Shown: positions 28,762 through 58,632 of the stretch, one piece after another
Layout of the letters: each line of letters begins with the position of its first letter
Position numbering within the stretch: position 1 is the stretch's first letter
From: Secundilactobacillus angelensis
GTDB lineage: Bacteria > Bacillota > Bacilli > Lactobacillales > Lactobacillaceae
Assembly: GCF_012641075.1 (NCBI RefSeq)
Contig: NZ_JAAXLJ010000001.1
Location: 124,001 to 188,000 of the forward strand
Direction of reading: 5' to 3'
Length of the DNA stretch: 64,000 nt
Translations under genes and position numbers: made by a program
The notes under the pieces: generated by a model
What the model saw: the letters and a program-made list of their open reading frames with translations, nothing else
Databases searched by the model: none
What the model was told of the DNA's origin: nothing

Positions 28762-28795
28762 TGAAAATTAGTTTTTAATTAATTTAACAAAAGCA

Positions 28796-28830
28796 AAAGG
28801 CAATAACCGATACCGGTTATTGCCTTTTTT
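28796..28830 (+). terminator. Terminator between tyrS and decarboxylase
   Basis: AAAGGCAATAACCG / CGGTTATTGCCTTTTTT hairpin with a T run. Confidence 0.85.
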
Positions 28831-28915
28831 CGTGCTGTTTCAGGAGATTATTGCAAGGAAATGTGAAATATCATATGCGATATATATAACATAAATGCCC
28901 TTTACAGGGTATTTG

Positions 28916-28929
28916 TGAAAGCGTATTCT
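28916..28929 (+). promoter_or_regulatory. cre-like catabolite site before the decarboxylase
   Basis: TGAAAGCGTATTCT matches the core of WTGNAANCGNWNNCW except for the first W. It lies about 40 bases before the start codon. A small inverted repeat (AAATGCCC/GGGTATTT) sits just upstream. Confidence 0.4.
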
Positions 28930-28967
28930 CAACTTGAAAATAAATACACAACTTGGAGGCTGTTACC

Positions 28968-30860: not shown

Positions 30861-30886
30861 AATAAAGCGGACGGAAGGAAGTTACC

Positions 30887-32314: not shown

Positions 32315-32332
32315 GTTGGCTGGAATGTCGAA

Positions 32333-32365
32333 CAGGAACTTATCTGTTGATAGGTTCCTGTTTTT
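32333..32365 (+). terminator. Terminator or attenuator between tyrP and nhaC
   Basis: CAGGAACTTATC / GATAGGTTCCTG hairpin followed by TTTTTATTTT. nhaC starts 18 bases later, so it is likely read at lower level. Confidence 0.75.
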
Positions 32366-32382
32366 ATTTTGAAAGAGGGCCG

Positions 32383-35625: not shown

Positions 35626-37095
35626 ATGTCTTTAAAGGAAACGTTCGTGGAAGAGTTGGAAAATGTTTTGAACATGGTTGGAGGCAAAGATGGTTCCAGA
35701 GATAAGTTATATATTACTCGTAAGAATGTAAGTGATAGCTTAACAAAGGGTGAGCAAGGGTTCGGGTTCATTTCCTTTATTCGCAGTGATCAGGCAGTTA
35801 GTGGCCGTTACTCAGGACTATCAATCAAAGTGAATCCTGGAGAGAACCACTATCGAATTTCTCTAGATATTGGTAACGAAGGTTTTGGTGATGACTATCA
35901 ATTAGCAACCTTGCCAGGAACCCGACGCCGATTTCTAAATTTGCAAAGGAACATTATTAGTTATTCTCAGAATCAAGAGGCTGACATTAAGTCGTTTTGC
36001 TCCTTGGAATACGGTGATGATGCACCCAAACGACAATTAAAAGATCTCGAAAAAGAATACAAAGCCGATAATATCGACTCACATCCCCAAGACTTGTTTG
36101 TAGCATTCGCAAAAAAGCCTGAGTTGACAGAAGAAATCCGTGATCAATCAAATAATCAGGAAGACTTTTGGCTAATCTTCAAAGCGGTTGTTGCAATTTA
36201 TGCTGAATTACGGCAATGGTCAAACAAGGGTGAGACTAAAATAGCTAATAAGTTTATTAGGGCAGTTGATGGTGATCATGATGGCAGCCAAGATGTGTCA
36301 GCTTATATTCAACAATTATTGAAACATCGTCAATATGTCGTCCTTCAAGGGGCCCCTGGCACTGGAAAAACCTATTTAATGAGCAAATTGAGTGAAAATT
36401 ACAAACCGTATTTTACTCAATTTCATGCTGAAACAACCTACTCTGATTTTGTGGGTGGTTACCGGCCAATTACTAATAATGGTCAATTAAGTTATCAGTA
36501 CTTTGAAGGTCCACTATTAAAAGCGATTCGTGCAGCAAAGGAAAACGATAGTCAGAAGGTTCTATTGATGATTGACGAAATCAACCGAGCTAATTTAAGT
36601 AACGTTTTAGGCGAAGCATTCTATCTATTTGAAAAGCAAGCTGGTGAGCGTAGAGCTAAAGTACAGCTCGGTGACCCACAGAATCCAATTAGTATTGAAG
36701 CCTTACCTTCCAATCTGTATGTTATTGCAACTATGAATACGGCTGACCGATCCTTGGCAGTAGTTGATTTTGCCTTACGACGTCGGTTTGCCTGGTACAC
36801 GATGCAGCCGCATGCTCTTAAACCAGCTGGCAACCAGACTTTTCATGCAAAACAGTTTGAAGCAATGGACCGCATCTTTCAAACGTACGCAACTAGCGAG
36901 GAATTAATGCTAGAACCAGGACAAGCCTACTATCTGACTGATTCCGAAAATGCGAATGCTCTGATGAACGACCGCATGCAATATGAACTTCTTCCTCTTA
37001 TTCGTGAGTACCTTGAGAATGGGTTAATGACGCAAGCAAAAGATGCCTTGAATCAGTACTTTGTCGATGAACTAAATCAGACATTGTTTATTTAG
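35626..37095 (+). CDS. mcrB: McrB-type GTPase of a type IV restriction system
   Basis: Motor subunit of McrBC, which cuts foreign DNA carrying modified cytosine. The N-terminal domain (residues about 10-170) is of the MrcB/DUF3578 kind that reads the modified base. The AAA+ part has Walker A GAPGTGKTY near residues 240-248, Walker B LLMIDEINRAN, the sensor ATMNTADRSL used for GTP specificity, and an RRRFAW arginine finger region. A TATAAT box at 35590 precedes it. McrC follows 10 bases later. It opens the defence island. Confidence 0.9.
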   Translation: MSLKETFVEELENVLNMVGGKDGSRDKLYITRKNVSDSLTKGEQGFGFISFIRSDQAVSGRYSGLSIKVNPGENHYRISLDIGNEGFGDDYQLATLPGTRRRFLNLQRNIISYSQNQEADIKSFCSLEYGDDAPKRQLKDLEKEYKADNIDSHPQDLFVAFAKKPELTEEIRDQSNNQEDFWLIFKAVVAIYAELRQWSNKGETKIANKFIRAVDGDHDGSQDVSAYIQQLLKHRQYVVLQGAPGTGKTYLMSKLSENYKPYFTQFHAETTYSDFVGGYRPITNNGQLSYQYFEGPLLKAIRAAKENDSQKVLLMIDEINRANLSNVLGEAFYLFEKQAGERRAKVQLGDPQNPISIEALPSNLYVIATMNTADRSLAVVDFALRRRFAWYTMQPHALKPAGNQTFHAKQFEAMDRIFQTYATSEELMLEPGQAYYLTDSENANALMNDRMQYELLPLIREYLENGLMTQAKDALNQYFVDELNQTLFI

Positions 37096-37105
37096 GAGGG
37101 ATATC

Positions 37106-38458
37106 TTGGGTAAAGATTTTCATGTTTCTACCGTTGAGATACCAACCTTCACAGACTATGTCTACCATCTTCCTAAAAGAATGATCGACCACCGAACACC
37201 ACTTGAGGATCAAGCCACTTTTATTGAGTTAAATCGCGAAGCTTTCTTATATTTAAATATTGAAGCTAGACAAGAAAACGGTGAATTGCATCTGTTAACA
37301 AATGGTTATGTAGGGGCAGTCCCATTGCGGATGCCACAGGCGGGCAAGGGAAAAGCAATTACCGATCTCATCGTTAGACCTCGTTATGGCGTTCACGAAA
37401 CGGATTGGTTTGCCTGGATGAGCCAAATGGCTGATTTTGCTGGTGTTAGCTTGGCACCAGAGACTGATTCTAGATTGAAATTAACCCGTTCTGAGGGGAC
37501 ACCTACTCCGCGTTATTTGATGGCTCAGGAAGTTATCAAAAATATGGTAGCCGTGGTGAAGTCGCGTGACTGGCAGTTGTTTAAGAATGAACGGAAGCTA
37601 CTCGAACGGCCAGTTGGTAGTGTTAACTGGACAAAGTATGCCAAACAAGCAGCGGACCCGCAGAAAAGATTGTTGTTTCCAACCCAAGTTAATGTGATGA
37701 CTCAAAACCACACTGAATTTGAACGAGCTTTGAATGTACTTTCTGAAGCTATTCAGATTATTAATAGTAGATTAACGCCGAATCGGGTTAAACAAAATTG
37801 TGCCCAGAACATAGCTTTCTTGGGGCATCAAATTTCTTTAAATCGCAGTGTAATGCATGAAACAGAACTCTTTCACATTCAGATGCGAGAAAGTGCGGAT
37901 GTTCAGAAGTTAAAAGAGTCGCTAAATGTATTTATTCAACAACAGACGAAAAGAGAATATAGCTGGCGGATTGATTTTTCAATGTTGTTTGAGCGATACG
38001 TCCAAAAGATACTGGCACATACCGTTGAACGAGTAGATAACAACACCAGAATTGGGCATACACTAACTCCGCATTATCGCCATCAAGTTTCGCAACTGAT
38101 GCCAAAGTATCTCGAACCCGATATGGTGGCTAAATTTGCTGGTGAGAAGATAGTATTAGATGCTAAGTATAAATCATATTTCTACGATCGATTTGGTGAA
38201 GGTCATGAGAGTCAGCAAGAAAGAATACGGCACGATATTCATCAGATTATTGCGTATACAAGTCTAATCGATGCTAGAACTGCCATCGTCATAGCACCAG
38301 TTGATGGTGACGAAGTTGTTGAAGAAATATCACAGTATGATCGGATTACTGTCGGCGTGTTGGGGATACCACTTGATCATCGACGTGCTAGGGAGTATGA
38401 GAGTAGTATAAGGTTATTTTTTGAGAAAATTACTGAACTTAGTACTGAGAATGATTAA
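37106..38458 (+). CDS. mcrC: McrC-type nuclease subunit
   Basis: Nuclease partner of McrB, 450 residues, starting with TTG 37106 after GGAGGG. The C-terminal PD-(D/E)xK site is visible as EPDMVAKF followed by VLDAKYKSY near residues 349-355. A downstream helix contains QERIRHDIHQIIAYT, as in the family. The N-terminal domain that contacts the McrB ring is less conserved. The pair is translated together and should act on modified phage DNA, complementing BREX. Confidence 0.9.
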   Translation: MGKDFHVSTVEIPTFTDYVYHLPKRMIDHRTPLEDQATFIELNREAFLYLNIEARQENGELHLLTNGYVGAVPLRMPQAGKGKAITDLIVRPRYGVHETDWFAWMSQMADFAGVSLAPETDSRLKLTRSEGTPTPRYLMAQEVIKNMVAVVKSRDWQLFKNERKLLERPVGSVNWTKYAKQAADPQKRLLFPTQVNVMTQNHTEFERALNVLSEAIQIINSRLTPNRVKQNCAQNIAFLGHQISLNRSVMHETELFHIQMRESADVQKLKESLNVFIQQQTKREYSWRIDFSMLFERYVQKILAHTVERVDNNTRIGHTLTPHYRHQVSQLMPKYLEPDMVAKFAGEKIVLDAKYKSYFYDRFGEGHESQQERIRHDIHQIIAYTSLIDARTAIVIAPVDGDEVVEEISQYDRITVGVLGIPLDHRRAREYESSIRLFFEKITELSTEND

Positions 38459-39153: not shown

Positions 39154-39756
39154 ATGGATGAGTATTCTGCTGGTGCTGTTAAATACGGCTTTTGGTTTAA
39201 TGAGTTTGATCAATTAATTCGGTGGGTTCTTGATGGCACATCAGATCAATCAATTAAGGATCAATTACAAGATGGTGTTTTTCTTAAACAAAAATCACGG
39301 CAACGTTCTTTGAACGTGACCTCAAGATTATTAACGCGAATCCATTCATTAACTACAGAACTTCAGAAATTATATCCAGATTTAGACCGTGATAATCAGC
39401 GATTATTAGTGCTAATTAGCATTATGAATACTGATCGATTAATTCATGATTTTATGATTACTTGTTTTAAAGATGCAGTGGTATTGGGTGATGAGCGGTT
39501 GCAAGACTATGAATTAGATGCTTTCTTTACACGAATGCAAGCCACTCATGAAAGCATTGCCAAATGGCAAGACCAAACAATTACCAGATTAAAGGGGACA
39601 ATTCGTAACTACCTCAGAGAATCAGGCATTGTTCGTTCGGAAGGTGATGATTTGGTTTTACGCCGTCCATTACTTGATCCAAGACTAATAGATGCACTTG
39701 TGAATGCATCATTACAGGAATATTTAGTAACTTTCACAGGGAGGACATATGAGTGA
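39154..39756 (+). CDS. brxA: BREX protein BrxA
   Basis: First gene of a type 1 BREX phage-defence operon, 200 residues. BrxA is a small helical DNA-binding protein (DUF1819, NusB-like fold). The region TSRLLTRIHSLTTELQKLYPDLDRDNQRLLVLISI (key R, L, E, D, Q positions) and the C-terminal REYLR-like segment fit. GGGGTGT precedes the ATG. It overlaps brxB by eight bases. Its exact task is not settled, but it is needed for defence in tested systems. Confidence 0.85.
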   Translation: MDEYSAGAVKYGFWFNEFDQLIRWVLDGTSDQSIKDQLQDGVFLKQKSRQRSLNVTSRLLTRIHSLTTELQKLYPDLDRDNQRLLVLISIMNTDRLIHDFMITCFKDAVVLGDERLQDYELDAFFTRMQATHESIAKWQDQTITRLKGTIRNYLRESGIVRSEGDDLVLRRPLLDPRLIDALVNASLQEYLVTFTGRTYE

Positions 39757-40354
39757 TTTAGATAACGATTTTAAACGGTTAGAGCAAAAAATTGGGCAAA
39801 AAGAATTTCAGCAGAACCGCGGCTTGTCTAATGAAGTCGGATACTACATTTTTGACTATCGACCAGAAGATGAATTACGGGTTCGAGAATACGTTAAAAA
39901 CATTGCTAATCGTTCAACTGTTGCCACGATAGGTGCCAATGTAAAAATTTTTAATTTGTATGATTTGATGATGGAGATCTTAGATGATTTTGGTTATACA
40001 GCTGGATTTGAAGATCTTGAAAAGAACTTTGGCATGACTCATGTAATTGAGGAAGTCAATAATATCTTGGAAATGAACGAAGAGCATAATCTCATCGTTA
40101 AACGCATTGAGTCACAGCTTTCTGATGATGAGCCAACAATTATTTTTATTACCGGAGTCGGAGAAGTATTTCCATTATTGCGATCGCATAAAGTGTTAAA
40201 CACTATGAATCAAGTAATTGATCAATCTCCCGTTATTATGTTTTATCCTGGCAAGTATGATGGCCTTCACTTACGGATGTTTGGTGAGCTTGAGGACGAT
40301 AATTATTACCGGGCATTTAGTTTGAGAATGGAGTGGAACGAACGTGAAGATTAA
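39749..40354 (+). CDS. brxB: BREX protein BrxB
   Basis: 201-residue DUF1788 protein, second gene of the BREX operon. Typical features are the N-terminal LDNDFKRLEQKI, the IFNLYDLMMEIL segment, the hydrophobic TIIFITGVGEVFPLLRSHKVLN core and the late VIMFYPGKYDGLHLRMFG block. The ribosome site GGGAGG lies inside brxA. It overlaps brxC by 11 bases, so brxA, brxB and brxC are translationally linked. Its role is unknown; it probably belongs to a complex with BrxC and PglZ. Confidence 0.9.
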   Translation: MSDLDNDFKRLEQKIGQKEFQQNRGLSNEVGYYIFDYRPEDELRVREYVKNIANRSTVATIGANVKIFNLYDLMMEILDDFGYTAGFEDLEKNFGMTHVIEEVNNILEMNEEHNLIVKRIESQLSDDEPTIIFITGVGEVFPLLRSHKVLNTMNQVIDQSPVIMFYPGKYDGLHLRMFGELEDDNYYRAFSLRMEWNERED

Positions 40355-43300
40355 AGAGTTATTTGCAAAGCCAATTGATCGCGATATTCAAGGGGTGATC
40401 AAGGTTGGGCAAGAAGATGATAAGCGTGTTCGTCAGGAATTGGAAGAATATGTTGTCACTCGAGAATTACAAGAACAGTTCGCAAACTTTTTTACAGCCT
40501 ATGAGAAAGCATTACAGGGACCGACAGATGATATGGGTGTGTGGATTTCTGGGTTTTTTGGTTCTGGGAAATCGCATTTCTTAAAAATTATTTCTTATAT
40601 TCTAGAAAACCGTCAAGTAGATGGGCAACCTGCCGTTACCTTTTTTAAGGATAAAATTACTGATCCTATGACATACAACCGCATGGAACGTGCTGCTGGA
40701 TCAGATACTCAGGTTATTCTGTTTAACATTGATTCAAAAGCTAAGAGTGGTGAAAAGCAGGAGAATAGTGTCATTATTAATGTTTTTCTCGATGTTTTTA
40801 ATGAGATGCAGGGGTACTCAGATAAAAATGCTTGGATTGCAGATCTTGAACGTCAATTAGATCAATCTGGTGATTATGAAGCATTTAAGAACAAATATAA
40901 AGAGTTAGAGAAGAATCACCTTAGCTGGGACATTGGACGTGACCATTATTCAATGAATATGGGAACGATCAAAGATACTTTAGTGCAATTAAATATCAAG
41001 TCTGAAGGTGATGCTCAAGGCATTATAGACAGTATTATGCAGCCTTATCAAATTAATCTTAGCTCGTTTGCGAAGCTAGTTAATGATTTCTGCGATAAAA
41101 CAGGGAAAAGATTGACCTTTATGGTGGATGAAGTAGGTCAATTCGTGGGTAAAAGCGAGCAACGAATGCTGAATCTACAAACTCTTGTTGAAGAGCTAGG
41201 AACAGCTACTCATGGTAAGGCCTGGGTTATCGTGACCTCTCAACAAGCGATTAATGAAGTTACTGCAAATATCAATGGCCAAGATTTTTCTAAAATTCAA
41301 GGACGTTTCAAGACTAGAATTGCAATGAGTTCTGCTAATGTCGATGAAGTAATTAAACGACGATTACTAGAGAAAACGGACAGTGCACACCAGGAATTAT
41401 CAGGCGTCTATGAAGCTAATGCTGCCTCTCTTAATAATGCGATTGATTTCGATGATGGACCAACTCGGCAAAAATTCACTAATGGTGCTGAATTTGCTGA
41501 AAATTATCCGTTTGTACCATATCAATTTCAATTATTACAACATGTTTTAACCGCTGTCCGGACCCATGGCTCAGATGGTAAACATTTGTCTGAAGGGGAA
41601 CGGTCGATGCTGTCCATTTTCCAAGAATCAGCAAGACGATTGATGAACGATGAAGAGGGTAAGTTAGTCCCATTTTCACTTTTCTTCGAGGGACTCGTTC
41701 AATTTCTTGATCATACCCACCGAATTGTTATTGAAAATGCACGTGATAATAGTACTTTGAATCCTGATAAAGAAAAGAATCCATTGACGCTTCAAGTATT
41801 GAAAGTCCTGTTCATGGTAAAATATTTAGATAATTTTGAAGCTACTGAGAATAACATAGTCACGTTAATGATCGACGAGATTAACGTTGATCGAATTGAA
41901 CTCACGAAAAATGTCCACGCTGCATTGTTGGCACTTCAACATGAAGGAATCGTTGAAAAGCACTTTGAAGATTATATTTTTCTGACGGATGCTGAACAAG
42001 ATATCAATACTGGAATTGAAAAACAAGAGATTAATTCAGCAGATATTACCAATACACTGCAACAGTTATTATTCAATAATAAAGAAATTGCAGAAAAGTA
42101 TAATTATCCTAAACTACACAACCGCTATAGTTTTAATTTCAACCGATTTTTGGATGGTAAACCATATGGTAAATATAACAATCAGCTCAATATTAAACTA
42201 TTTACACCGCTGAGTGATTATTTTGGTGATGAATTGACTTATGCTCAAGAAACAACGGTTCCGGGGAGCTTAGTTATAGCAATGCCAAACGATCGAAGCT
42301 ACATTGACCACATTACTCGATCATTAAAAATTAAACAGTATATTTTAAGTAATACCAATAATCAAGAATCTCGTTTTCGATTATTGATTGATGAACGGCA
42401 AAGTGAACGGGTTCAAATAGATAAAAAAGCCGAACAGCAACTATTTAATGCACTAGAAAGCGCTACTTTATATGTTTCAGGAGCACCTATTAAGAGCAAA
42501 CACGATTTTAAAAATCGTTGTGAAGAAGCTGAAAAAGCTGTTGTAGACGATGCTTACCGTAAGTTGAGTTATATCGAGGTTGCTAAAGATGCTCATGATA
42601 TTACGCAGTTGTTTGCAGATGAAGGAATGGTCTCAACTGATGAAAATAGTACGGCGGTTGCTGAAGTTTCGGACTATCTACAACAAAAAGCCCAAGCAGG
42701 TAGTCAACATTCAACATTGAAGTCTGTACTGACTCGCTTTCAAGATATTCCTTACGGTTATACAGAAGCGGATACGGAATGGCTAGTGGCTTCTTTATTT
42801 AAGCAAGGAAATATTAAAGTTAGCCTGAATGGTGAAAGCATCAGTCCAATCTCCACACCGGCTTCTCAAATTACAGAATATCTTACCAAAAAGCAATTTT
42901 CAGAAAAGATAGCAATTCAATGTCGCAAAGAAGTTGCTCCTCGTGATTTGAAAAAATTAAGAGAAGTTGCAGGTGATGTTTTTAATAAAAAAACCTTTAG
43001 TTCGGATGATGCAGAGACGGTAGCAACTGAAACACGGACAAAGGTAAAATCTGACTATGAATTATTAACTAATTTTGAAAACATGAATAAATTTTTCCCT
43101 GGCCATGATATTTTACAACAAGGGGAAAAATTAATACATGAGTTGGCAATAACCAGTGATACTGATTCATTTATAAACATTGTCGTTTCTAAAGCTGAGG
43201 ACTTACTCGATTGGTATGATGACTACGAAGAAAGAGGTATTAGAGATTTCTACTTCAGTGCTGAAATGCAGAAAATTTGGCAAGCAGGTCTAAATGACTT

Positions 43301-43919
43301 AGAAATTTACGATAATTCCCATGACTTTATAGCTGATGCAGAACTTGAAGAAATTATTCAAAAGCTTCAAAAATTATTGAATTCCAACCGTGCTGATAAT
43401 AATGTACGTGAGATTAATAAATTAGATCAACAGTTTGATGTAAAGTTTAGTCAAGTTTTTGATGCTAAATTAGCGAATAAACTTACAGAAATTGAAAACA
43501 TACAGCAAAATGGGTTAGATTTTTTAAAGCGATCTGAAGTGGCGACAGATAAATTACTGAAACCACAACAACGTTTTGATTCAATGATTGAAACTATTAA
43601 AAAAGATGCTAAAGAAGCTAAAACGTTGAATGCTTTAACGATCACCTCTAATCGTGCAGATGCTGTTTTTGACCAATTGACTAATACAGTTGAAATATTG
43701 ATAAAGGAACAAGAGCCCGATCCGGATCCATTAACACCGCCAACAGACGATGTTAAGCCAGCTAAAAAATCAATTGAAACTGTACGGGTCAGAGATGTAG
43801 TTAATACTAATCAATGGCATATTACTAGTGAGGCGGACATTAAGAATTACCTTAATTCTTTGGAACAACAATTAAAGATAAAATTATCTGATACTAACGA
43901 AATTAACGTTAAATTCTAA
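40344..43919 (+). CDS. brxC: BREX ATPase BrxC
   Basis: Large AAA-type ATPase of 1191 residues. The Walker A is GFFGSGKSH near residues 69-77, and the Walker B-like segment is FMVDEVGQF near residue 259. It begins with GTG 40344 inside brxB. The C-terminal half is helical with coiled-coil character (residues about 1000-1120, repeated L/K/E). The frame is intact over its full length. BrxC is thought to move or remodel DNA together with PglX and PglZ. Base composition is clearly A+T-richer than the flanking chromosome. Confidence 0.93.
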   Translation: MKIKELFAKPIDRDIQGVIKVGQEDDKRVRQELEEYVVTRELQEQFANFFTAYEKALQGPTDDMGVWISGFFGSGKSHFLKIISYILENRQVDGQPAVTFFKDKITDPMTYNRMERAAGSDTQVILFNIDSKAKSGEKQENSVIINVFLDVFNEMQGYSDKNAWIADLERQLDQSGDYEAFKNKYKELEKNHLSWDIGRDHYSMNMGTIKDTLVQLNIKSEGDAQGIIDSIMQPYQINLSSFAKLVNDFCDKTGKRLTFMVDEVGQFVGKSEQRMLNLQTLVEELGTATHGKAWVIVTSQQAINEVTANINGQDFSKIQGRFKTRIAMSSANVDEVIKRRLLEKTDSAHQELSGVYEANAASLNNAIDFDDGPTRQKFTNGAEFAENYPFVPYQFQLLQHVLTAVRTHGSDGKHLSEGERSMLSIFQESARRLMNDEEGKLVPFSLFFEGLVQFLDHTHRIVIENARDNSTLNPDKEKNPLTLQVLKVLFMVKYLDNFEATENNIVTLMIDEINVDRIELTKNVHAALLALQHEGIVEKHFEDYIFLTDAEQDINTGIEKQEINSADITNTLQQLLFNNKEIAEKYNYPKLHNRYSFNFNRFLDGKPYGKYNNQLNIKLFTPLSDYFGDELTYAQETTVPGSLVIAMPNDRSYIDHITRSLKIKQYILSNTNNQESRFRLLIDERQSERVQIDKKAEQQLFNALESATLYVSGAPIKSKHDFKNRCEEAEKAVVDDAYRKLSYIEVAKDAHDITQLFADEGMVSTDENSTAVAEVSDYLQQKAQAGSQHSTLKSVLTRFQDIPYGYTEADTEWLVASLFKQGNIKVSLNGESISPISTPASQITEYLTKKQFSEKIAIQCRKEVAPRDLKKLREVAGDVFNKKTFSSDDAETVATETRTKVKSDYELLTNFENMNKFFPGHDILQQGEKLIHELAITSDTDSFINIVVSKAEDLLDWYDDYEERGIRDFYFSAEMQKIWQAGLNDLEIYDNSHDFIADAELEEIIQKLQKLLNSNRADNNVREINKLDQQFDVKFSQVFDAKLANKLTEIENIQQNGLDFLKRSEVATDKLLKPQQRFDSMIETIKKDAKEAKTLNALTITSNRADAVFDQLTNTVEILIKEQEPDPDPLTPPTDDVKPAKKSIETVRVRDVVNTNQWHITSEADIKNYLNSLEQQLKIKLSDTNEINVKF

Positions 43920-43941: not shown

Positions 43942-46900
43942 ATGGATAAACGTGTCATTAATAAATTTGCAGTCCAAGCGCGTCGTGATCTGATTCTAAG
44001 TGTTACGTTACGTCTGCAAACACTTGGAATTACAGAAAATGGGGCTGTTGAAAAGAACGATCGGTCAACCGCACAAGCAGAGTATTACAACGATAATACA
44101 ACACCATTGGAAGGCGCGGACATTGCTCGACGGGCCAAAATTGTTCAACGATTACAAGAAACTGCTCAAAACAGTGATTGGAAAAGTGCTTATCAGGATT
44201 TGATTGAAGAAGTTGCTTACACTTGGTTTAACCGAATTATTGCGATTCGGTTTATGGAAGTTAACGATTATTTACCATCTGGTGTCCGTGTACTCTCTTC
44301 AGTGGAGGGACGTAATGAACCTGATATTATGTTTTACGCAAATGATATAGAGGCTGACATTGGTACTTATACCAAAGCAGAACATGAATTGATTCAACGG
44401 GCTACAGATCAACAGTTGCCTGCTGATCTTGATCGTATGTATCAAATGCTGTTTATTAAGCAAGCTAATGCTTTGAATGCGAATCTACCTAAGTTGTTTG
44501 AGCGCACTGATGACTATATGCAGCTTTTGTTCACTCCCAGCTATAATCGCGGTGTAATTGCAGACTTAGTGGAACAGATTCCAGAAGCAGATTTCGATAT
44601 TTCTAGTGATGACAGTCAGGGACAAGTTGAGATTATTGGGTGGCTGTATCAGTATTATAATCAAGAACCTCATAACGAAGTTGTTAACATTAATGGTGGG
44701 CCAGTTAAAGAACGAGATATTCCTGCAGCCACCCAGCTTTTCACGACTGATTGGGTTGTGCGGTATATGGTCGATAACTCATTAGGACGTTATTACCTGG
44801 AACACACACCGGATTCAAAACTAGCCACACATTTGAAGTATCTGTTACCAGGTGACTTAAATATGTCATCAGAAACGTTAGACCTTACTAAATTACGCAT
44901 TTTGGATAATGCTATGGGCTCAGGACATATTCTGGTTTACGCATTTGATGTTTTAATGAAAGTCTACGAGGAACAAGGATACTCATTACGAGAAGCAGCT
45001 CAATTGATTGCGACGCAAAATCTATATGGCTTAGAAATTGATAAACGAGCCTATCAATTAGCATATTTTGCAATTATGATGAAAGTTCGTCAATATGATC
45101 GACGAGCGTTAACCCGCCAGTTAAACTTAAATTTACTTGTATTTGAGAATACACAAAACTTAACTGACAACTTCTTTAGCCAATTAGAACTCTCCGTAGA
45201 GCAACGTAGCCAATTACTAGAGTTGCGGGATGATTTCTTACATGCGAAAACATTGGGATCAATTATACATTTTGAACGTCAATATGATGTTCAATCATTG
45301 TTGAGAACTATCAATGGATTAAATGAAAATACTCAACATAATTTATTTATTACGAGTGCTGATTTGGCACAATTACAGCAGATGGTTCAAATAGTTGGCG
45401 TATTACAGGCTAAATACGATGTTGTGGTGACTAATCCGCCCTATCTTAATAAGATGGATAAATCACTGAAAAATTATGTTAAAAAGTATTACAAAAATTA
45501 TTCAGGAGATCTGTTTTCAATCTTTATCTGGATAAATATTAACATGACTCGGCCTGATGGGTATGCTGCTTATATGACGCCGTTTGTGTGGATGTTTATT
45601 AAAACATACGAAAAATTACGACTTAACATATTAGATAATCAGTCTATTTCAAGCTTAATTCAAATGGAGTATTCGGCTTTTGAAGAAGCAACTGTGCCAA
45701 TTAATACCTTTGTATTGAAGAATTCAAACAAGGAAATAAACCATATTGGGACTTATCTTAAGCTTTCGGCCTTTAAGGGTGGTATGGATATTCAAAAAGA
45801 TAAAGTATTAGAGGCTGTATTGAATCCTACAGTAAAATATCTTTATCGAACTAATCAAGCGAACTTTGGTAAGATTCCGGGAAGTCCAATTGCTTATTGG
45901 GCTAGTTTGGCTTTATTGAAAGATTTCACTATCGGGAAACCACTTAACAAATTTGTTGATGTAAAGCATGGTATGACCACAACTGATAATAACCGATTTA
46001 TTAGGCAATGGTATGAAATTGTTTTCCAAAATATTCAGTTCCATGAAAAAACAGTAACTGAAGCAGCACAATCTAATAAAAAATGGTTTCCATTCAATAA
46101 AGGTGGAGCATTCAGACGTTGGTCGGGAAATTATGATTATGTAGTTAATTACCAATATGATGGCTTAGAAATTAAAGCTAATGCACTAAAACGATATCCA
46201 TATTTAAAGACTCCTGATTTTGTCGTACCCAATTCAAGGTATTACTTTCACCCTTGTGTTACCTGGTCAGATATTGGGAGTGGTCTTTTCAGTATGCGAT
46301 TTCGAGAACAAGGTTCTATTATGGGGAATAAAGGGCCAAGCGCATATTCAAAGGATAAAAGTGCGTTATTAACAGTTCTAGGGCTTATGAATTCAGTTGT
46401 TGGACAACATATTATTCGAATGATTAATCCGACAATTACAAGGAATGTGCAGGATGTGGGAAAAACTCCCGTTATTATCTTTGATAACAGGAAAATTTTA
46501 AGACGGATTCAAGAAAATATTTTTATAACTCAGGGAGAATGGAACTCATTTGAAACTTCTTGGGAGTTCTTACAAAACATACTTATAAAACATATCGCTG
46601 AGCATAATCAAAACTGGACCATTGAGGCTGCATACAATCAATGGGAGCAGGAAGCGTTAAATCGCTTTAATCAACTGAAAGCAAATGAAGAAGAACTCAA
46701 TCGATTCTTCATTGATCTTTCGGTCTTCAAGATGAGTTAACACCTGAGGTGGCAGATAAAGATGTATCAGTACGAAAAGCTGATTTACCACCGGATATTA
46801 AAGCATTCTTGTCTTACTTTATTGGTGTAACTTTTGGTCGATATTCGCTGGATGTTCCAGGATTAGTGTATGCCGGTGGTCAATGGGATAGTGATAAATA

Positions 46901-47519
46901 TAAGACTTATCAGCCTAATAAAGATGATATTATTCTACTTACGGATGATGATTACTTTGGAGATCAAAGAGACATTATTAACCGGCTAAAGTCTTTCTTG
47001 ACGATTACGTTTGGTGAGAGTCATTTAGATGAAAATCTTCGTTTTATTGCTAATGTATTAGGCAAAAAGGGAGAGACCCCTGAAATACAAATTCGGAAGT
47101 ACTTTATTGATGATTTTTACAAGAAGGATCATCTATCAACTTATCAAAAGCGACCGATTTATTGGCAATTTACTTCTGGTAGACAGGGGGGATTTAGAGC
47201 CTTAATGTACTTACATCGTTATGATGAGAATACGTTGGCTATGATTCGAACATCATACCTTCATCCGCTGCAGGAAGCATATGAGAATAGGCGAGTACAA
47301 TTACAGAAATTAGCTGAGAGTGAAATCAATACGAAACAGCGCAATCAAATGACCAAGCGTGTAACCACCCTTGGGAAAATGATTGATGAAATTATTAAAT
47401 ATGATAGTGCGCTCCAACATGTTGCTAACATGCACGTTGAGCTTGACCTAGATGATGGTGTACTTGTTAACCATGAAAAAGTGCAGGGCGGACAAAAAAT
47501 ACTAAATCCGTTAAAATAG
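43942..47519 (+). pseudogene. pglX: BREX methylase PglX, broken by a frameshift
   Basis: Adenine methyltransferase that marks host DNA for BREX. Residues about 322-333 hold the SAM motif (DNAMGSGHIL), residues 497-500 the catalytic NPPY, and the target-recognition part follows from about residue 650. The first frame ends at 46740 after 932 codons (DLSVFKMS). Reading one base back, the frame continues without a break as GLQDELTPEVADKDVSVRKAD to 47519. A lost A between 46720 and 46721 (TTC for TTAC) explains it. The repaired length is about 1191 residues, normal for type 1 PglX. The C-terminal 256 codons alone start at a fortuitous GTG 46749. Confidence 0.9.
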
Positions 47520-47610: not shown

Positions 47611-48738
47611 GTGCCAACTTATTCTTGTGAAATAATATCGATAATTCGATCTGTATCCTGTTCTTCAAGTTCTTTTATAACGTGTAGATAAGTTGATTGT
47701 GTCGTTGTAATATTTGCATGTCCTAGTCGTTTAGACACTGATAAAACACTAATACCTTGATAGAGTAAAATTGAGGCGTGTGTCTGAGTCCGTGAAAAGT
47801 GATTCTAGGCAAATTTAATGACGTTAACTTTGCCGTTAATATTTTATTGATTTCAGCACTTACGGGTGTCTTACCATCTTTTAGAAAAATTGGTGAACTA
47901 GAAGCTATCTCATGGCTATTTGAGGACTGTTGTAGTGCTTTGATTGCAGCAATGTTAACCGAAATACGACGCACTAAACTTGGTGTTTTAGTTTTTTTAA
48001 AACCGGTGTGATATTTATAATCCCATGTTTTGTTGATGTTAATTTGATTTAACTCATTATCAAGATCTTCAGGTGTTAGGCCAATAACTTCAGCGTAGAG
48101 CATGCCGGTAATAGCAGCTATATAGATGATTAATTGTTTGCGTTCTGTTAAGTCTAGGTGCTGGATAAGGCACTGCCATTCAGCGTAGTTTAGTGCTTTT
48201 TTTGGATGCTTAACTGTATGTCCACTTACAACTGCTTTCCGAGTAGGATCAATTGGAATAATACGCTCGTCCAAAGCATCCAACATAGCTGCATAAATTT
48301 GTTTATGAAATGTTGAAACCGTTCGAGGTGCATGATCAACCGCAAATTCGTTAAGTTTTTCTTGATATAGGGACCGGCTGATGTCTTTAAGCAAAATATG
48401 GCCAAATAATCGTTTGATATGTTGTAGTGTATTACCATATTTGATTAAAGTTACATCACTCACAGAATTTTCTTTATACAGCTGTACCCAACGCGCAAAA
48501 TAGTCTGTAAATGGAATGTTACCAGCTCGATAATGTTGCACACTAATATAATTTGATTTTACTTGGCTGGCGGCTAATTCGGCATTACTTTTAAGTGAAA
48601 ATCCTGATTTACGTAGCTTTTTGTAAGTGCCATCAATATCCTTATATGAAATTCCGTACTGCCAAACATTGCCCCATTTTCGATAACTAACCATAATTTA
48701 TGCCACTTCTTTGTGTGGTATAACTACTAAGTTGGCAC
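47611..48738. repeat. 11-bp inverted repeats flanking the recombinase gene
   Basis: GTGCCAACTTA at 47611-47621 and its exact reverse at 48728-48738 bracket the integrase gene, the left one overlapping its stop codon. They may be recombination sites or remnants of the shuffling module. The length is short enough for chance. Confidence 0.4.
47619..48694 (-). pseudogene. Frameshifted tyrosine recombinase of the pglX module
   Basis: Phage-type integrase expected to invert DNA between pglX and its silent copy. The intact frame from ATG 48694 gives an AP2-like N-terminus, a SAM-like domain and the catalytic domain up to HGLRHT, then runs out of frame and stops at 47723. Inserting four bases near 47776-47783 (a lost ACAC in an AC repeat) restores HASILLYQGISVLSVSKRLG, then TTTQSTYLHVI with the catalytic tyrosine, ending at 47619 (359 residues). 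As it stands, the nucleophile is missing and the enzyme should be dead. Confidence 0.88.
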
Positions 48739-48788
48739 AAAATTGGCCCAGAGGCATGTAGATTTATGAAAATGTATGAGTTTGAGCG

Positions 48789-50849
48789 ATTATGCTCAAC
48801 GATGTGAGAAACTAGTGAAAATTTATCAAAATTCCAAGAGGTTTCATCTAAATTCCAGTTAATATCTGAAATTAAAATATTATTTTGAAATATTTTTTCG
48901 ATTGCTGGTGATAAATGAGTATTTACTACGGGAAAATTTCTAAAATCACCAATTTGCATATTAATGGTTGGATTTAATAATTTAAAAATATAATTTCCTA
49001 ATTTTGAGTTAAGCATTACTAATGTTAGTTATAACATTTTTTATCTCCAAATGCTTCTTTGCCAGCACTATCATGTATACTTCCCTGACGTCGAAATCGA
49101 ATACTAAAACCACCGCTAGTTATTAATGACCATGTAATTGCTTGCTTAAAGTAAGTAGTTTCACTCATCACTCTAGATTTAGTTTGTTGTGTTCCACGAG
49201 TAAAGAACCTTATTTGTTGTCCATTATTCTCCCAGTTAATAATGTAATCATAGTTTCCGCTCCACTTCCGATAAGACCCTCTTTTATTGTATGGGAACCA
49301 TTTTGCGTGTGAGAGCGTTGCCTCTTAATTTGACTTAACTTTAAATTCTATCTTATCTATTCTTACTTCATACCATTGACGTAAAAAGCGCGCGTTATCC
49401 CCAGTAGTTAAATCAGCTTTAGGATCCACTACTGAATCCAAGGAAAGTCCTTTCTCGAAATCTTGAAGTAAGTATTGACTGACCCAATAAGCAATTGGAT
49501 TTCCCGGAATCTTGCCAAGGTTCGTTTGATTAGTTCGATAAAGATATTTTACTGTAGGATTCGATACAGCCTCTAATACTTTATCTTTTTGAATATCCAT
49601 ACCACCCTTAAAAGCCGAAAGCTTAAAATAAGTCCCAATATGGTTTATTTCCTTGTTTGAATTCTTCAATACAAAGGTATTAATTGGTACAGCTACTTCT
49701 TCAGTTGCTTCTTCAAAAGCCGAATACTCCATTTGAATTAAGCTTGAAATAGACTGATTATCTAATATATTAAGTCGTAATTTTTCGTATGTTTTAATAA
49801 ACATCCAAACAAATGGCGTCATGTAGGTAGCATACCCAACAGGTACAGTCATATTGATATTCAACCAAATAAAGACCGAAAACAGATCACCTGAATAGCT
49901 CTTATAATACTTTTTCACGTAATCTTTAAGGGGTTTATCCATTTTGTTTAGGTACGGTGGGTTAGTTACTACCACGTCGTACTTAATTTGCAGCATCTGC
50001 CGCAATTGTGACAAATCATCCTTTCTCACAAATAAACTGCTTTGCTCAGTATCTGATAACGAATCAATAGCATTAGTTAGTGCTTGAGTATCATATTTAT
50101 GATCTAGGTGGATGATGGATCCAAGCGTTTTAGCCTGTAAAAAGGTATCTCGAAGTTTTGTTAACTGTTCGCGCTGATTGCTTGTTATGGCTAACTGATT
50201 CAAGAAATCATTTGTTATATTTTTAGTACTTTCAAACGTAAATAGATTCAGTCCTAAATGCCGCTTCAGTGCTCGTCGATCATACTGACGAACTTTCATC
50301 ATAATAGCAAAATATGCTAGTTGATAGGCTCGTTTATCGATTTCTAAACCAAACAAATTATGTGTGGCAATCTGTTGTGCTGCTTCGCGTCGAGAATAAC
50401 CTTGTTCTTCATAAATCTGCATCAAAACGTCAAATGTATAAACTAAAATATGACCAGAACCCATTGCATTATCTAAAACACGTAATTTAGACAGATCTAA
50501 CGTGTCCCTTACTCTATTTAAATCACCTGGCAATTGATATTGTAAATGATCTGCCAATCCGGAATCAGGTGTATGTTCCAAATAGTAACGTCATAAGGAA
50601 TTATCGACCATATGCCTCACTACCCAATCAGTTGTAAAAAGCTGGGTGGCAGCCGGAATATCACGTTCTTTAACTGGACCACCGTTAATATTAACGACCT
50701 CATTGTGTGGCTCTTGATTATAATATTGATACAGCCACCCAATAATTTCAACTTGCCCTTGGCTATCATCACTAGAAATATCAAAATCTGTTTCCGGAAT
50801 CTGTTCCACTAAGTCTGCAATTACACCGCGATTATAGCTGGGAGTGAAC
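48789..50849 (-). pseudogene. Silent inverted pglX cassette
   Basis: Reverse-oriented partial copy of pglX matching residues about 196 to 900; the first 195 and the last 290 or so residues are absent. It holds the SAM motif and NPPY plus a different target-recognition region. Homology to pglX starts at GTTCACTCCCAGC. It is disrupted: GGA to TGA at 50591-50593 (SLGRYY becomes SL-stop), a TAA at 49325-49327 between KVKSN and EATLSHAKW, and a frameshift with a stop near 49015-49030. A tract at 49500-49805 is nearly identical to 45591-45900 of pglX. Confidence 0.9.
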
Positions 50850-50952
50850 GATAATTACTGACGTCATCTAGTATTCAATTACTGGATTCGTTATACTAAT
50901 TGCAAGAGAATAATTGCATGGACGATGCATGATAGTGGAGATATGAAAACGT

Positions 50953-53481
50953 ATGGCTGATCTAGATTTAACACAAATAGTAACCGCAATTGAATCATTG
51001 TTTACTGAACGTAATCACTTTGTTTTTTGGTTTGATGATCAAGGCGAATTTGTCGATAATATTACAGAGATTGCGACTGCTTTGAAAGAAATGGTGATTG
51101 TAATGCAGCCGCAAGAACAATTCAAAACTAAAATTCAGTTGGTAGACATGCAACGCCAGCAGCAAGATGCACTGGTGTATTCACCTGCACCGATGCCACC
51201 CATTGAGCTTAATCATTTAGAGGACTTTATTCGTTTTTCTAAGCGTTACTCAGCCGATGCTACTTCGATGTTATTAGAAGAACTTGGCATTCCGGAGAAT
51301 AATCGAACTACTTTGGTAACCTATGCATCATTTTTTGCGAATAAAGAACGTAAGGAACGGTTTAAAACACGTTATCATCATCAATCTGATCTTGAAATGG
51401 TGATGATGTCCGCATTAGCGAAGGCTAAAGATGCTAGTATGACTTCTATCTTGCAGGCAGTCTGTCAGGATACCTTAGACGCTAATAATCAGTATCTTGT
51501 TAGTTTTGACAAATATGGATTATTAACTTCATTTTGGAGTCATGTTGAGCGTGCTTACGGTTTTTCTGAAGCACAGCCAACACTGCTACATCTAATGACG
51601 GCAATGTTTGTTAATACGGCATTTGATCAGGCAGAAATTAAGTTACCAACGGGGTTACATGCCTATACCTTAACTAATAACAGTAATGCCATTACGTATT
51701 TGAAAAACACTCGTGATTCCGTTACATATCGCGGTGCAATTAAACAAATTGCTAATCAGGTTTGGTTAACTATTCAAGGTGATCAACTATTTGGCAGATT
51801 AGAGATTATTCAACTCGTTAAAGTTGATGTTTTTCCAGAAGTTGACCCAATGATCTTAAAATGGTTGACTGGGCGCTTAGTAGCGGAGGATTATTCTGTT
51901 CAGGTTAACAACCAATCAATACCAGAATTGATAGCTGATCGGTTGACTCGAGCATACGCAGAAGATTATCAAATTGCTTATCAGCTGCAAAATGAGGCAT
52001 TTACGTTATTGACACTTGACTTACAAGCCACACCGAATAATTTTGAAACGGCTGTTACACAATATGTTAGCCATGATTATCAACTTGATACGAGTTATCG
52101 ATTGTTCACTATGGCGTTCAGTCAGATTCAACCGCAATTGGAAGCAACGATTGAACCCTTACGTAACAAAGTTGAAGCGAAGTACCTTAATGACTTTCTG
52201 AGTGCTGTTGTACCCAATTGGACGGCTAACTATGCACCGTCTAAAGTACCTACTAATCATCAGCAAAGTCACTTTTACTACGATGATATTCGTCATAATA
52301 AAGAGCGAACTGTGGTCTTAATTTCAGATGCATTTCGCTTTGAAGCGGGGAAGTCATTACAAGCACAATTGGATAGTCGAGATGTTGTAGATACGTCAAT
52401 GGATTATCGAATAACTGGACTACCTTCCGTTACTTACTTTGGCATGCCAGCATTATTACCTAACCAACAATTGACATATACGCACGATAACACGGTGTTA
52501 GTTGATGGACAGGAAGCCAATAATACAGAAAAACGTGAACTGGTTCTTCAAAACGTTAATCCTAACAGTCGGGCTCTTCAGGTAAAAGACTTCCTAGAAA
52601 TGGATTCTAAAAAACGTAAGGCAACGTTAACTGATCAAAAAGTGATCTATCTTTATCATAATATCATTGACACAACAGGTGAAAAATCAATCACTGAACA
52701 AACCGTTTTTTCGGCAACTGACAAAACCATTAATGAGCTTGCACGAACAATTGAAATTTTAAGAAATCTTAGCGTTAGTCATATTGTGGTAACAGCTGAT
52801 CACGGTTATATTTATCGTCAATCAGCTTTAGATAGCGCTAATAAAATCGATGTGGCTAAAGAGAATTATGATGCTATTAGTGGCGAGAAGAAGGAACAAC
52901 GCTATTTAATTAGTCAAAAGCCACTGCAGTTAACTGGTGTTATAGCTCAATCGTTGGGAGAGCTACTTGGCAATGAAGACTCACGATGGATTAGTTATCC
53001 GAAGAATTTTGATATTTTTTCAGCTCCTGGGCCAAGTCAAAATTACGTGCATGGCGGTTGTTCGCCACAAGAAATGATCATTCCTGTCTTAGATATTCAT
53101 ACTCGTAAAGGTCGCTCACAAGCAGCCCCGGTAACTGTTCATGATGTTACAGCAATGAACCGAATTACGTCCCGTGAAGTTAATGTTCAAATTATGCAGG
53201 ACGATGCGCTTAGTGACACCGTAATTGCTGCCAGTTTCCGAGTATACTTTGTTGATGACCAAAATCAGGTTATTTCTGAAATTCAAACATTGACGGCAGA
53301 GAGTACCGCAGATTTACCGACGGATCGAATTCAAACACTTCGGTTAGCGTTAAAGGACGTTAAATACGCCACTGGACAGCATTACTCATTAGTTATACAA
53401 AATACTGACACTAAGACAGAAAAACGTTCTGACTACACGATGGACATGGTGATTGGAGGAGGATTCGGCTTTGACATCTGA
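50953..53481 (+). CDS. pglZ: BREX phosphatase-fold protein PglZ
   Basis: Core BREX protein of 842 residues with an alkaline-phosphatase-like domain. The metal-site motifs are VVLISDAFRFEAGKS near residues 453-467 and VVTADHGYIYRQ near residue 611. The N-terminal two-fifths are helical and the last 150 residues look beta-rich. It stands 104 bases after the silent cassette, behind GTGGAG, with a TATACT box at 50892 as a possible own promoter. The frame is intact. It overlaps brxL by 11 bases. Confidence 0.93.
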   Translation: MADLDLTQIVTAIESLFTERNHFVFWFDDQGEFVDNITEIATALKEMVIVMQPQEQFKTKIQLVDMQRQQQDALVYSPAPMPPIELNHLEDFIRFSKRYSADATSMLLEELGIPENNRTTLVTYASFFANKERKERFKTRYHHQSDLEMVMMSALAKAKDASMTSILQAVCQDTLDANNQYLVSFDKYGLLTSFWSHVERAYGFSEAQPTLLHLMTAMFVNTAFDQAEIKLPTGLHAYTLTNNSNAITYLKNTRDSVTYRGAIKQIANQVWLTIQGDQLFGRLEIIQLVKVDVFPEVDPMILKWLTGRLVAEDYSVQVNNQSIPELIADRLTRAYAEDYQIAYQLQNEAFTLLTLDLQATPNNFETAVTQYVSHDYQLDTSYRLFTMAFSQIQPQLEATIEPLRNKVEAKYLNDFLSAVVPNWTANYAPSKVPTNHQQSHFYYDDIRHNKERTVVLISDAFRFEAGKSLQAQLDSRDVVDTSMDYRITGLPSVTYFGMPALLPNQQLTYTHDNTVLVDGQEANNTEKRELVLQNVNPNSRALQVKDFLEMDSKKRKATLTDQKVIYLYHNIIDTTGEKSITEQTVFSATDKTINELARTIEILRNLSVSHIVVTADHGYIYRQSALDSANKIDVAKENYDAISGEKKEQRYLISQKPLQLTGVIAQSLGELLGNEDSRWISYPKNFDIFSAPGPSQNYVHGGCSPQEMIIPVLDIHTRKGRSQAAPVTVHDVTAMNRITSREVNVQIMQDDALSDTVIAASFRVYFVDDQNQVISEIQTLTAESTADLPTDRIQTLRLALKDVKYATGQHYSLVIQNTDTKTEKRSDYTMDMVIGGGFGFDI

Positions 53482-55516
53482 GGAACAACAGACACGACAG
53501 AAGACGATATTGACTAAATTGGAAGAGTTTTTCCAAGGACGTTATGTACGTAAAGATTTAACTCAACGAATTAAAGAAGGAGCCAATGTTCCAACTTATG
53601 TTCTAGAATTTCTATTAGGCCAGTACGCTAATGGGTCTGATTCAGAAGCGATTGAACATGGGGTTGAAAACGTCAAACGAACTTTAGCGAATAATTATGT
53701 TCGACCGGATGAAGCCGAAAAAATTAAATCAAAAATCCGTGAAAATGGTTCTTATACGGTAATTGATAAATTAACGGTTTATTTAAATACAGCAGAAGAT
53801 CGCTATGAGGCAAGTTTTAGTAACTTAGGAATTGATGGCGTTCCTGTAGATGAACGTTATCCCCAAGACTATGAGCGCTTATTGATTGGTGGTATTTGGT
53901 CCATAGTTCGACTTAGTTACGATCATGAAAGTGAAGATCATTTTCATATAGAAGACCTTACCCCTGTTCAAGTACCGTTTGTTGATATGAAGGAGATTTA
54001 CTCTGGTCGGAGTGAATTCACGACTGATGAGTGGATTGATCTTTTATTACGTTCTATGGGAATGGAGCCAGATGAGTTTGATGATCGTGTTAAATGGTTA
54101 TTAATTTCACGACTGATTCCATTAGTTGAAAATAACTATAATCTTGTGGAATTAGGACCTCGGGGGACGGGGAAATCACACGTATATAAAGAACTATCAC
54201 CCAATTCAATTTTAGTTTCTGGTGGGCAAACTACTGTGGCTAACCTTTTCTATAACATGACGCGTCATGAGGTCGGTTTGGTCGGCATGTGGGATACGGT
54301 TGCTTTTGACGAGGTTGCTGGGATTAATTTTAAAGATCAAGATGGCATCCAGATCATGAAGGATTACATGGCTTCTGGTTCATTTGCTCGCGGAAGAGCT
54401 GAAATTCAAGCAAGTGCAGGAATGGTATTTGTTGGTAATATCAATCAGAGCGTGGATGTTTTATTACGAACTTCTAACTTATTTGAACCATTTCCAGAAG
54501 TAATGGGAACCGATACTGCTTTTTTGGACCGAATTCACAACTATTTACCAGGCTGGGAAATTCCAAAGTATAAACCAGCTTTCTTTACGAGTGGTTTTGG
54601 CTTTATTACTGATTATCTTGCAGAAGTGATGCGAGAGTTGCGTAAGATCTCTTACGGAGATGCTTTTGATGAATACTTCTCACTGGGCTCTCAGTTGAAT
54701 CAGCGTGATACAATTGCCGTTCGTAAGACTGTTTCTGGGATGATCAAGTTATTGTATCCTAATGGTGAATTTTCTAAAGAAGACGTGGCCCAGGTACTTA
54801 CATTTGCTTTAGAAATGAGACGACGGGTTAAGGAACAACTTAAGAAAATTGGTGGCATGGAATTTTATGATGTCAACTTTTCCTATATTGATCGAGAAAC
54901 TCAAATCGAAACCTATGTGGGTGTTCCGGAGCAAAGTTCCGCAACACTAATTCCAATGGGAACTGAAAAGCCAGGCTTTGTTTATGTCATTGGGCACGAT
55001 TCCGATGAGAGATTAGGCTTATTCAAGTTAGAGTCTCAAGTAATGTCTGGTAACGGTAAGCTTGAAAAAACGGGGATTGGTAATCAGCGTGAAGCTCGTG
55101 AGTCTATGGATGCCGGCATGAGATTGTTACTGACCAATTTCCGTAAAATTGATCAACGTATTGCGCCTAAGCGACATAATTTTGTTTTGAATGTCAGCAA
55201 CCTTAATGGAACAGACACAACGAGCCATTTAGCCCTAGCTAGTTATATTGCACTTGCTTCAATTGGTGTTAGCAGGCCAACCCTCGATAGTTTAGTTGTT
55301 ATTGGTGATATCACAATTAGTGGCGAACCTAGAATGGTTGATGACTTGGCTGATACGCTACAAGTTGCTAAAGAGAGTGGTGCTAAAAACGTTCTTTTGC
55401 CAATTTCGGTTGTTGAGAAGCTTTCAGAAGTGCCTTCTGAAGTTGTAGCTACCTTTAACTTGATCTTTTACTCTTCAGCTGATGATGCAGTATATAAGGC
55501 ACTGGGAGTTAACTAA
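53471..55516 (+). CDS. brxL: BREX Lon-like protein BrxL
   Basis: The start chosen is TTG 53471, which lies seven bases after GGAGGAGG; an in-frame TTG at 53453 precedes that site. The 681 residues have an N-terminal DNA-binding part, an AAA+ domain with Walker A GPRGTGKSH (about 229-237) and Walker B TVAFDEVAG (about 277), and a C-terminal Lon-like domain (SHLALASYIALASIG, then GDITISGEPRMVDDL). The lysine of the Lon dyad is not evident. BrxL forms rings on DNA and is needed for phage exclusion. Last core BREX gene here. Confidence 0.92.
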   Translation: MTSEEQQTRQKTILTKLEEFFQGRYVRKDLTQRIKEGANVPTYVLEFLLGQYANGSDSEAIEHGVENVKRTLANNYVRPDEAEKIKSKIRENGSYTVIDKLTVYLNTAEDRYEASFSNLGIDGVPVDERYPQDYERLLIGGIWSIVRLSYDHESEDHFHIEDLTPVQVPFVDMKEIYSGRSEFTTDEWIDLLLRSMGMEPDEFDDRVKWLLISRLIPLVENNYNLVELGPRGTGKSHVYKELSPNSILVSGGQTTVANLFYNMTRHEVGLVGMWDTVAFDEVAGINFKDQDGIQIMKDYMASGSFARGRAEIQASAGMVFVGNINQSVDVLLRTSNLFEPFPEVMGTDTAFLDRIHNYLPGWEIPKYKPAFFTSGFGFITDYLAEVMRELRKISYGDAFDEYFSLGSQLNQRDTIAVRKTVSGMIKLLYPNGEFSKEDVAQVLTFALEMRRRVKEQLKKIGGMEFYDVNFSYIDRETQIETYVGVPEQSSATLIPMGTEKPGFVYVIGHDSDERLGLFKLESQVMSGNGKLEKTGIGNQREARESMDAGMRLLLTNFRKIDQRIAPKRHNFVLNVSNLNGTDTTSHLALASYIALASIGVSRPTLDSLVVIGDITISGEPRMVDDLADTLQVAKESGAKNVLLPISVVEKLSEVPSEVVATFNLIFYSSADDAVYKALGVN

Positions 55517-58335: not shown

Positions 58336-58632
58336 CAAGTTGAACAACAGAAAAAGCTTGAGGATGAGTAAGCTTATTTTGTCAGTTTTAGAGAGTCACT
58401 GTGTTGGTGAAAGGTGATACTGGCATTGAGCTGAAGATGGTCTGAATAATGTTGATTTGGTAAGCTTTTGTGAACCAAATTCGGGTGCGCCCGTTATAGC
58501 GGTAGGATATCTGACACTTGTCATGTATCTGAAGAGTCATAAATGAGTATTTATGAAATTAAGGTGGTACCGCGAAAGAGCGCTTTCGTCCTTTTTCTAC
58601 AACAGTAGATTAAGACGAAGGCGCTCTTTTCG
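58336..58632 (+). ncRNA. T-box riboswitch, methionine specifier (second)
   Basis: AGAGAGTCACT and GTTGGTGAAAGGTGA in stem I, specifier region GCTGAAGATGG giving ATG, aligning with the met operon leader. The T-box is AAGGTGGTACCGCG (58561-58574). The terminator AAGAGCGCTTTCGTC pairs with GACGAAGGCGCTCTT and ends in a T run. It controls the hydroxyacid dehydrogenase and transporter genes that follow. Confidence 0.88.

What the first reader, a model, noticed from the sequence alone, without database searches (positions are those of the whole stretch)
46711..46760. Expressed BREX pglX carries a one-base frameshift near its 3' end
The first frame ends as DLSVFKMS-stop at 46740. The -1 frame reads on without a break as GLQDELTPEVADKD through 47519. 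Restoring one base (TTC to TTAC) gives the expected DLYGLQDEL and a full PglX of about 1191 residues. All other BREX genes are open. BREX needs PglX for modification and defence, so this locus may be off, or PglX works as a truncated or two-piece protein.
Basis: partly seen in the sequence, partly recalled or inferred. Interest (0 to 1): 0.75.

Follow-up and report, generated by a model that had tools for sequence, protein, structure and literature searches.

The report
Broken switchable BREX methylase locus
In a lactic-acid bacterium a phage-defence methylase gene is broken by a frameshift, and so are the gene-flipping enzyme and the spare inverted gene copy beside it; comparing intact relatives suggests how this defence swaps its parts and shows that some bacteria carry the same protein as two separate genes.

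Summary
The frameshift is real: pglX reads 932 codons (43942-46740), then continues as the PglX C-terminal domain (CTD) in another frame (46749-47519). brxA, brxB, brxC, pglZ and brxL are open. In 100 other gene loci (109 kb) no frameshift was found, so general sequencing error is unlikely. The switch module looks recently dead; BREX is probably off. In relatives, active and inverted copies share near-identical islands at PglX domain borders. In 21 of 21 evaluable loci one copy carries an alpha and the other a beta methylase module; alpha is active in 11, beta in 10. The CTD sits on one copy only, so a single flip must truncate PglX; two relatives are in that state. The window's break lies in the constant CTD, which shuffling cannot replace. 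In 4 Lactobacillaceae places and 10 named loci PglX is naturally two genes, cut at the TRD/CTD border some 35-45 residues before the window's break. Two-piece PglX exists, but this break does not imitate it.

The parts
39154..39756 (+). brxA, open
39749..40354 (+). brxB, open
40344..43919 (+). brxC, open
43942..46740 (+). pglX first reading frame, 932 aa: NTD, MTD, TRD and the first part of the CTD
46700..46740 (+). stretch in which the reading frame changes; it holds no run of four or more equal bases
46749..47519 (+). rest of the PglX CTD in another frame, 256 aa from GTG
47628..48697 (-). tyrosine recombinase; frame changes at about 47777-47783, at its HGLRHT motif
48786..50854 (-). inverted partial pglX copy (residues 195-890) with stops at 50591 and 49325 and a frame change near 49022-49034; one search counts a further stop at its very start
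44524..44672 (+). inverted repeat 1, arm in pglX (NTD/MTD border), 91%
50706..50854 (-). inverted repeat 1, arm in the inverted copy
45681..45906 (+). inverted repeat 2, arm in pglX (around the MTD/TRD hinge), 95%
49478..49703 (-). inverted repeat 2, arm in the inverted copy
50953..53481 (+). pglZ, open
53453..55516 (+). brxL, open

Best explanation
The locus is a decayed derivative of a BREX type 1 system whose pglX is a module-swapping, inverting gene. In intact relatives a tyrosine recombinase beside pglX is inferred to flip DNA between short inverted repeats shared by pglX and an inverted partial copy; the repeats lie at the NTD/MTD, MTD/TRD and TRD/CTD borders. Two flips at different repeats exchange the methylase and/or recognition module; a single flip leaves the expressed gene without its CTD (off). 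In the window the constant CTD of pglX, the recombinase and the inverted copy all carry frame-breaking lesions, and repeat 3 is not detectable as a strong island. The expressed gene therefore makes a 932-residue protein that ends inside the CTD, the switch should not turn, and shuffling cannot supply another CTD. BREX is most likely off. Shown: lesions, module map, comparative pattern. Inferred: loss of activity, action of the recombinase, on/off meaning.
For: Frame change and homology of both pieces. Recombinase frameshift; in 13 of 13 named relatives studied the recombinase is open (358-391 aa from the first ATG) and so is the active pglX (1178-1221 codons between stops). Inverted copy broken. 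No frameshift in 100 other gene loci, 108,831 bp; 10 flagged cases all explained by a long clean gene on the other strand or by start/end effects. Repeats between the two copies in relatives: in the 13 named loci repeat 2 in 13 and repeat 3 as an exact match of 16 nt or more in 11; in 24 loci at the stricter setting repeat 1 in 23, repeat 2 in 22, repeat 3 in 12. Methylase modules one alpha and one beta in 21 of 21 evaluable loci, 11 alpha-active and 10 beta-active. Two relatives in the single-flip state. The borders fit E. coli BrxX NTD 1-210, MTD 211-650, TRD 651-837, CTD 838-1205 (PMC11842806, passage).
Against: No reads, second strain, expression or methylation data were available. Divergence after each break is still codon-like, so the breaks are recent, or errors confined to this place. 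Repeat 3 is missed in 12 of 24 loci at the strict setting. No flip was observed directly and species are not independent events. L195 and L203 (beta/beta) and the window (alpha/alpha) break the one-of-each pattern. C-terminal variants of Salmonella PglX can uncouple restriction and modification (PMC12707154, passages), so methylation might survive. Broken pglX genes are common according to print (PMC9122589, passage).
Confidence: 0.74

Rival explanations
1. Assembly or sequencing error: the strain has an intact PglX and BREX is on.
For: No reads seen; codon-like divergence continues after both breaks; inverted repeats can trouble short-read assembly (general knowledge). One other genome (G298) has pglX and pglZ in pieces, as error-prone assemblies do.
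Against: No frameshift in 100 other gene loci, 109 kb, of the same genome. Both breaks lie outside repeats 1 and 2; the inverted copy has further lesions.
Confidence: 0.17
2. Two-piece PglX: the 932-aa and 256-aa pieces are both translated and work together.
For: PglX is naturally two genes in 4 Lactobacillaceae places and 10 named loci; a GTG start lies 9 nt after the first stop.
Against: The natural cut is some 35-45 residues upstream. I see no good Shine-Dalgarno sequence before the GTG. The conserved NEEELN..YGL.DEL stretch is divided. The adjacent recombinase and inverted copy are decayed.
Confidence: 0.05
3. Reversible on/off switching of pglX by a frameshift (slippage) or by recoding at the site.
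For: Frequent disruptions of pglX have been read as phase variation (PMC9122589, passage).
Against: No run of four or more equal bases in 46700-46740; the switch in relatives is by inversion, and here the recombinase is broken too.
Confidence: 0.04

Closest known systems
BREX type 1 with full and partial pglX and an integrase (Lactobacillus rhamnosus; Goldfarb et al. 2015, not held, known here through citing papers)
   Same: L. [quoted passage not shown]
   Different: In the window pglX, integrase and inverted copy are all broken, both methylase modules are alpha and repeat 3 was not found
Lacticaseibacillus paracasei (L. casei) Zhang BREX
   Same: pglX plus a second methyltransferase gene; pglX alone accounts for 6mA (PMC10164179, passages)
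   Different: Functional there; its second copy was not examined here
Invertible type I R-M hsdS loci (recalled)
   Same: Works like: specificity modules exchanged by inversion between an expressed and a silent copy
   Different: Here methylase and recognition modules are in one protein and the CTD is present once only
E. coli BrxX and Salmonella PglX (PDB 9ewz, 8c45)
   Same: Homologous along both pieces
   Different: Those are single uninterrupted polypeptides

Membership tests
BREX type 1 | brxA, brxB, brxC, pglX, pglZ, brxL in order | tested here: met
BREX type 1 | intact PglX methyltransferase | tested here: not met
   frame change in 46700-46740; hence 'decayed derivative', not working member
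BREX type 1 | 6mA at a non-palindromic motif and phage exclusion | not testable with these tools
   no reads or cells
Inversion-switched pglX locus | inverted partial pglX copy beside pglX | tested here: met
   48786-50854, minus strand
Inversion-switched pglX locus | intact site-specific recombinase between the copies | tested here: not met
   present but frameshifted
Inversion-switched pglX locus | inverted repeats at the domain borders | tested here: inconclusive
   repeats 1 and 2 present, repeat 3 not found as an island
Split (two-gene) PglX | N part ends near ETSWDF..HPL and the CTD is a separate gene beginning about ..LI.DK | tested here: not met
   the window's break is some 35-45 residues further on

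The most novel reading that the evidence does not exclude
In lactic-acid bacteria PglX is a three-junction inverting gene with a single CTD. Odd numbers of flips detach the CTD and switch BREX off; even numbers restore it with a swapped methylase and/or recognition module, so the cell passes through an off state whenever it changes specificity. Other lineages, in Lactobacillaceae and clostridia, have freed the CTD as its own gene, giving a two-subunit PglX in which one CTD can serve several interchangeable methylase-TRD proteins.
Probability: 0.55. Interest if true: 0.75.

Novelty: new variant of a known kind. Interest (0 to 1): 0.52.

Why it matters
The window shows a switchable defence dying: the constant part, the recombinase and the spare copy are broken while the rest of the operon is open. 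The comparison made to explain it gives testable rules for how BREX may change specificity (junctions at domain borders, an obligatory CTD-less intermediate) and points to naturally split PglX, which would let the role of the CTD be tested by mixing subunits; its last part has been called a region of unknown function (PMC11341690, passage).

Tried and rejected
Slippage or recoding at the break: no suitable repeat. Rescue by a second PglX or CTD in the genome: none found. A chimeric junction at the recombinase break, suggested by 71% identity before and 96% after it to L059: dropped, because L050 and L073 rise there too (60 to 86%, 56 to 79%). Shuffling as a source of an unbroken 3' part: dropped, because inverted copies of relatives end before the CTD. 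Species name: not established; no 16S gene was found, and a 6-kb query from elsewhere on the contig matched 11 of 12 genomes reached through named loci only in short pieces of at most about 600 bases. That the genome is a member of Lactobacillaceae is inferred: several same-family genomes have contigs of the same length as named Lactobacillaceae records. Two of the four short-CTD genomes fetched from the phylum sample (G689, G810) are genes broken elsewhere, not the clean split. Goldfarb et al. 2015 could not be read, so it may already describe part of the inversion pattern. I saw no account of a split PglX in the listings, nor in the passages or section read; no paper was read whole.

Full report
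OBSERVATION. The two frames are as described: 43942-46740 (932 aa) and 46749-47519 (256 aa). Both match one PglX profile in series and solved PglX/BrxX chains. The break lies in a conserved CTD stretch with no run of four or more equal bases in 46700-46740. The genome holds no other CTD, and one other strongly pglX-like place.

SURROUNDINGS. The locus is BREX type 1: brxA, brxB, brxC, pglX, a minus-strand tyrosine recombinase, a minus-strand partial pglX, pglZ, brxL and a GmrSD-type protein. The recombinase changes frame at its HGLRHT motif: the L059 protein matches in frame -2 to residue 308 and in frame -1 from there on. The inverted copy matches residues 195-807 in one frame, with stops at 50591 and 49325, and 813-890 in another (one search counts three stops over a slightly longer stretch). 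Three parts of one module are thus broken while brxA, brxB, brxC, pglZ and brxL are open.

ERROR OR DECAY? 494 reference ORFs of 150 aa or more, from stretches of three congeneric genomes, were compared with 244 kb of this genome (nine fetched 20-kb stretches and the window). 100 gene loci (108,831 bp) were clean and 10 cases were flagged. All ten were explained: three in the window by stops at the ends of the match, seven elsewhere by a long clean gene on the other strand or by start/end effects. Against none there stand two in the 4.6 kb of pglX plus recombinase, besides the lesions of the inverted copy, which may not be translated. Divergence from two relatives is concentrated at codon position 3 on both sides of each break, so the breaks are recent, or errors confined to this place.

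INTACT RELATIVES. One genome-contig scan gave 80 named loci. Thirteen with active copy, recombinase and inverted copy were studied: active pglX open in 13 of 13, recombinase in 13 of 13, inverted copy as one long frame in 12 of 13 (L070 broken). DNA identity between the copies rises at the start of the MTD, at the MTD/TRD hinge and, in most, at the TRD/CTD border. A search of 397 Lactobacillaceae genomes with the CTD gave 49 genomes and 51 places, window included. The 50 others were fetched and sorted (details 48, 52, 73): 24 with recombinase, inverted copy and an uninterrupted fused pglX in the normal orientation; 13 fused with no recombinase seen (2 of them near a contig end); 2 in the flipped state (L184, L189); 4 split (L190-L193); 1 interrupted (L182); 2 broken places of one genome whose pglZ is in pieces too (L186, L187); 2 near contig ends (L181, L188); 2 of undetermined orientation (L183, L185). 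Some are the same records as named loci, so the sets must not be added.

MODULE SWITCHING. In the 24 loci, at a strict setting, repeat 1 is a sharp island, mostly 140-150 bp (271 bp in L218), in 23 (L219 lacks that part of the inverted copy); repeat 2 is seen in 22 and repeat 3 in 12. A tree of methylase modules falls into two clades, alpha and beta. Set aside: L195 and L203 (beta in both copies) and L219 (no such module in the inverted copy). In the remaining 21 of 21 one copy is alpha and the other beta; alpha is active in 11, beta in 10. The species are not independent (L198 and L199 give the same figures). Six loci have similar TRDs in both copies (66-79%) beside dissimilar methylase modules (34-39%), so the two modules move separately. 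Outside hint: between two sequences of L. rhamnosus GG, two of three differences in the partial pglX copy mirror the two in the full copy exactly, with reciprocal changes (Table 1 of PMC6256098, section read; mirror sums are mine). They lie at nt 657-660 of the full copy, inside repeat 1. Positions 2160010 and 2163622, listed as mutated in its evolved clones (passage), correspond to about nt 1906 of the full copy, in the region of repeat 2. The authors do not read them so in the passages seen.

THE CTD RULE. Inverted copies end just after the TRD, so a single flip must leave the expressed gene without a CTD. L184 and L189 look like this: the copy behind brxC matches only to residue 888-889, the CTD lies on the opposite strand and the recombinase is turned round. 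That this is an off state is inference. In E. coli, mutants of charged residues assigned to the CTD abolished defence (PMC11842806, passage); C-terminal variants of Salmonella PglX can uncouple restriction from modification (PMC12707154, passages).

SPLIT PglX. In L190-L193 and ten named loci (L031, L034, L036, L039, L041, L046, L062, L064, L072, L077) the methylase-TRD protein ends at ..ETSWDF..HPL(I/V) or a close variant, and the CTD is its own ORF, mostly beginning ..LI.DK(F/Y) behind a Shine-Dalgarno-like sequence (in L031 and L062 the ORF as called starts further upstream, and L036 is a 4-kb contig without other BREX genes matched). Of the 80 named loci 53 are fused, 11 have a short CTD ORF (these ten and L032, a broken or masked record), 7 are cut by a contig end, 1 is other and 8 have no CTD match. 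L034, L046 and L072 hold two methylase-TRD genes and one CTD gene. In a sample of 398 Bacillota genomes, 40 matched the CTD, window included; of four strong places with a CTD ORF under 500 aa, two are clean splits (one evidently the same record as L077) and two are genes broken elsewhere.

CONCLUSION. The window is a recently dead switchable BREX. Its pglX break lies some 35-45 residues past the natural split point, inside the constant CTD, so neither shuffling nor likeness to split PglX is likely to make it work. A two-piece PglX is real in sequence, but in other genomes; that those split systems function was not tested.

Noticed in passing
window 27427-33825: Tyrosyl-tRNA synthetase, tyrosine decarboxylase, amino-acid permease and Na+/H+ antiporter in a row, as in tyramine-forming clusters.
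   Followed up: no
window 35626-38458: AAA_5 ATPase and McrBC component just upstream of brxA: apparently a methyl-directed defence pair in the same island.
   Followed up: no
window 55569-57644: GmrSD-type (type IV restriction) protein directly behind brxL.
   Followed up: no
window 58352-58596: T-box leader (Rfam RF00230, 109.5 bits).
   Followed up: no
L039 12480-13340; L034 13884-14732: Genes between the methylase-TRD gene and the CTD gene of split loci: a TIR-domain protein like SpbK (L039) and a DUF2971 protein (L034).
   Followed up: partly
L034 9901-10632: A short ORF that matches only PglX residues 632-882 (recognition module) between two methylase-TRD genes.
   Followed up: no
L195, L203 and the window: Exceptions to the one-alpha-one-beta pattern: L195 and L203 are beta/beta, the window alpha/alpha.
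   Followed up: no
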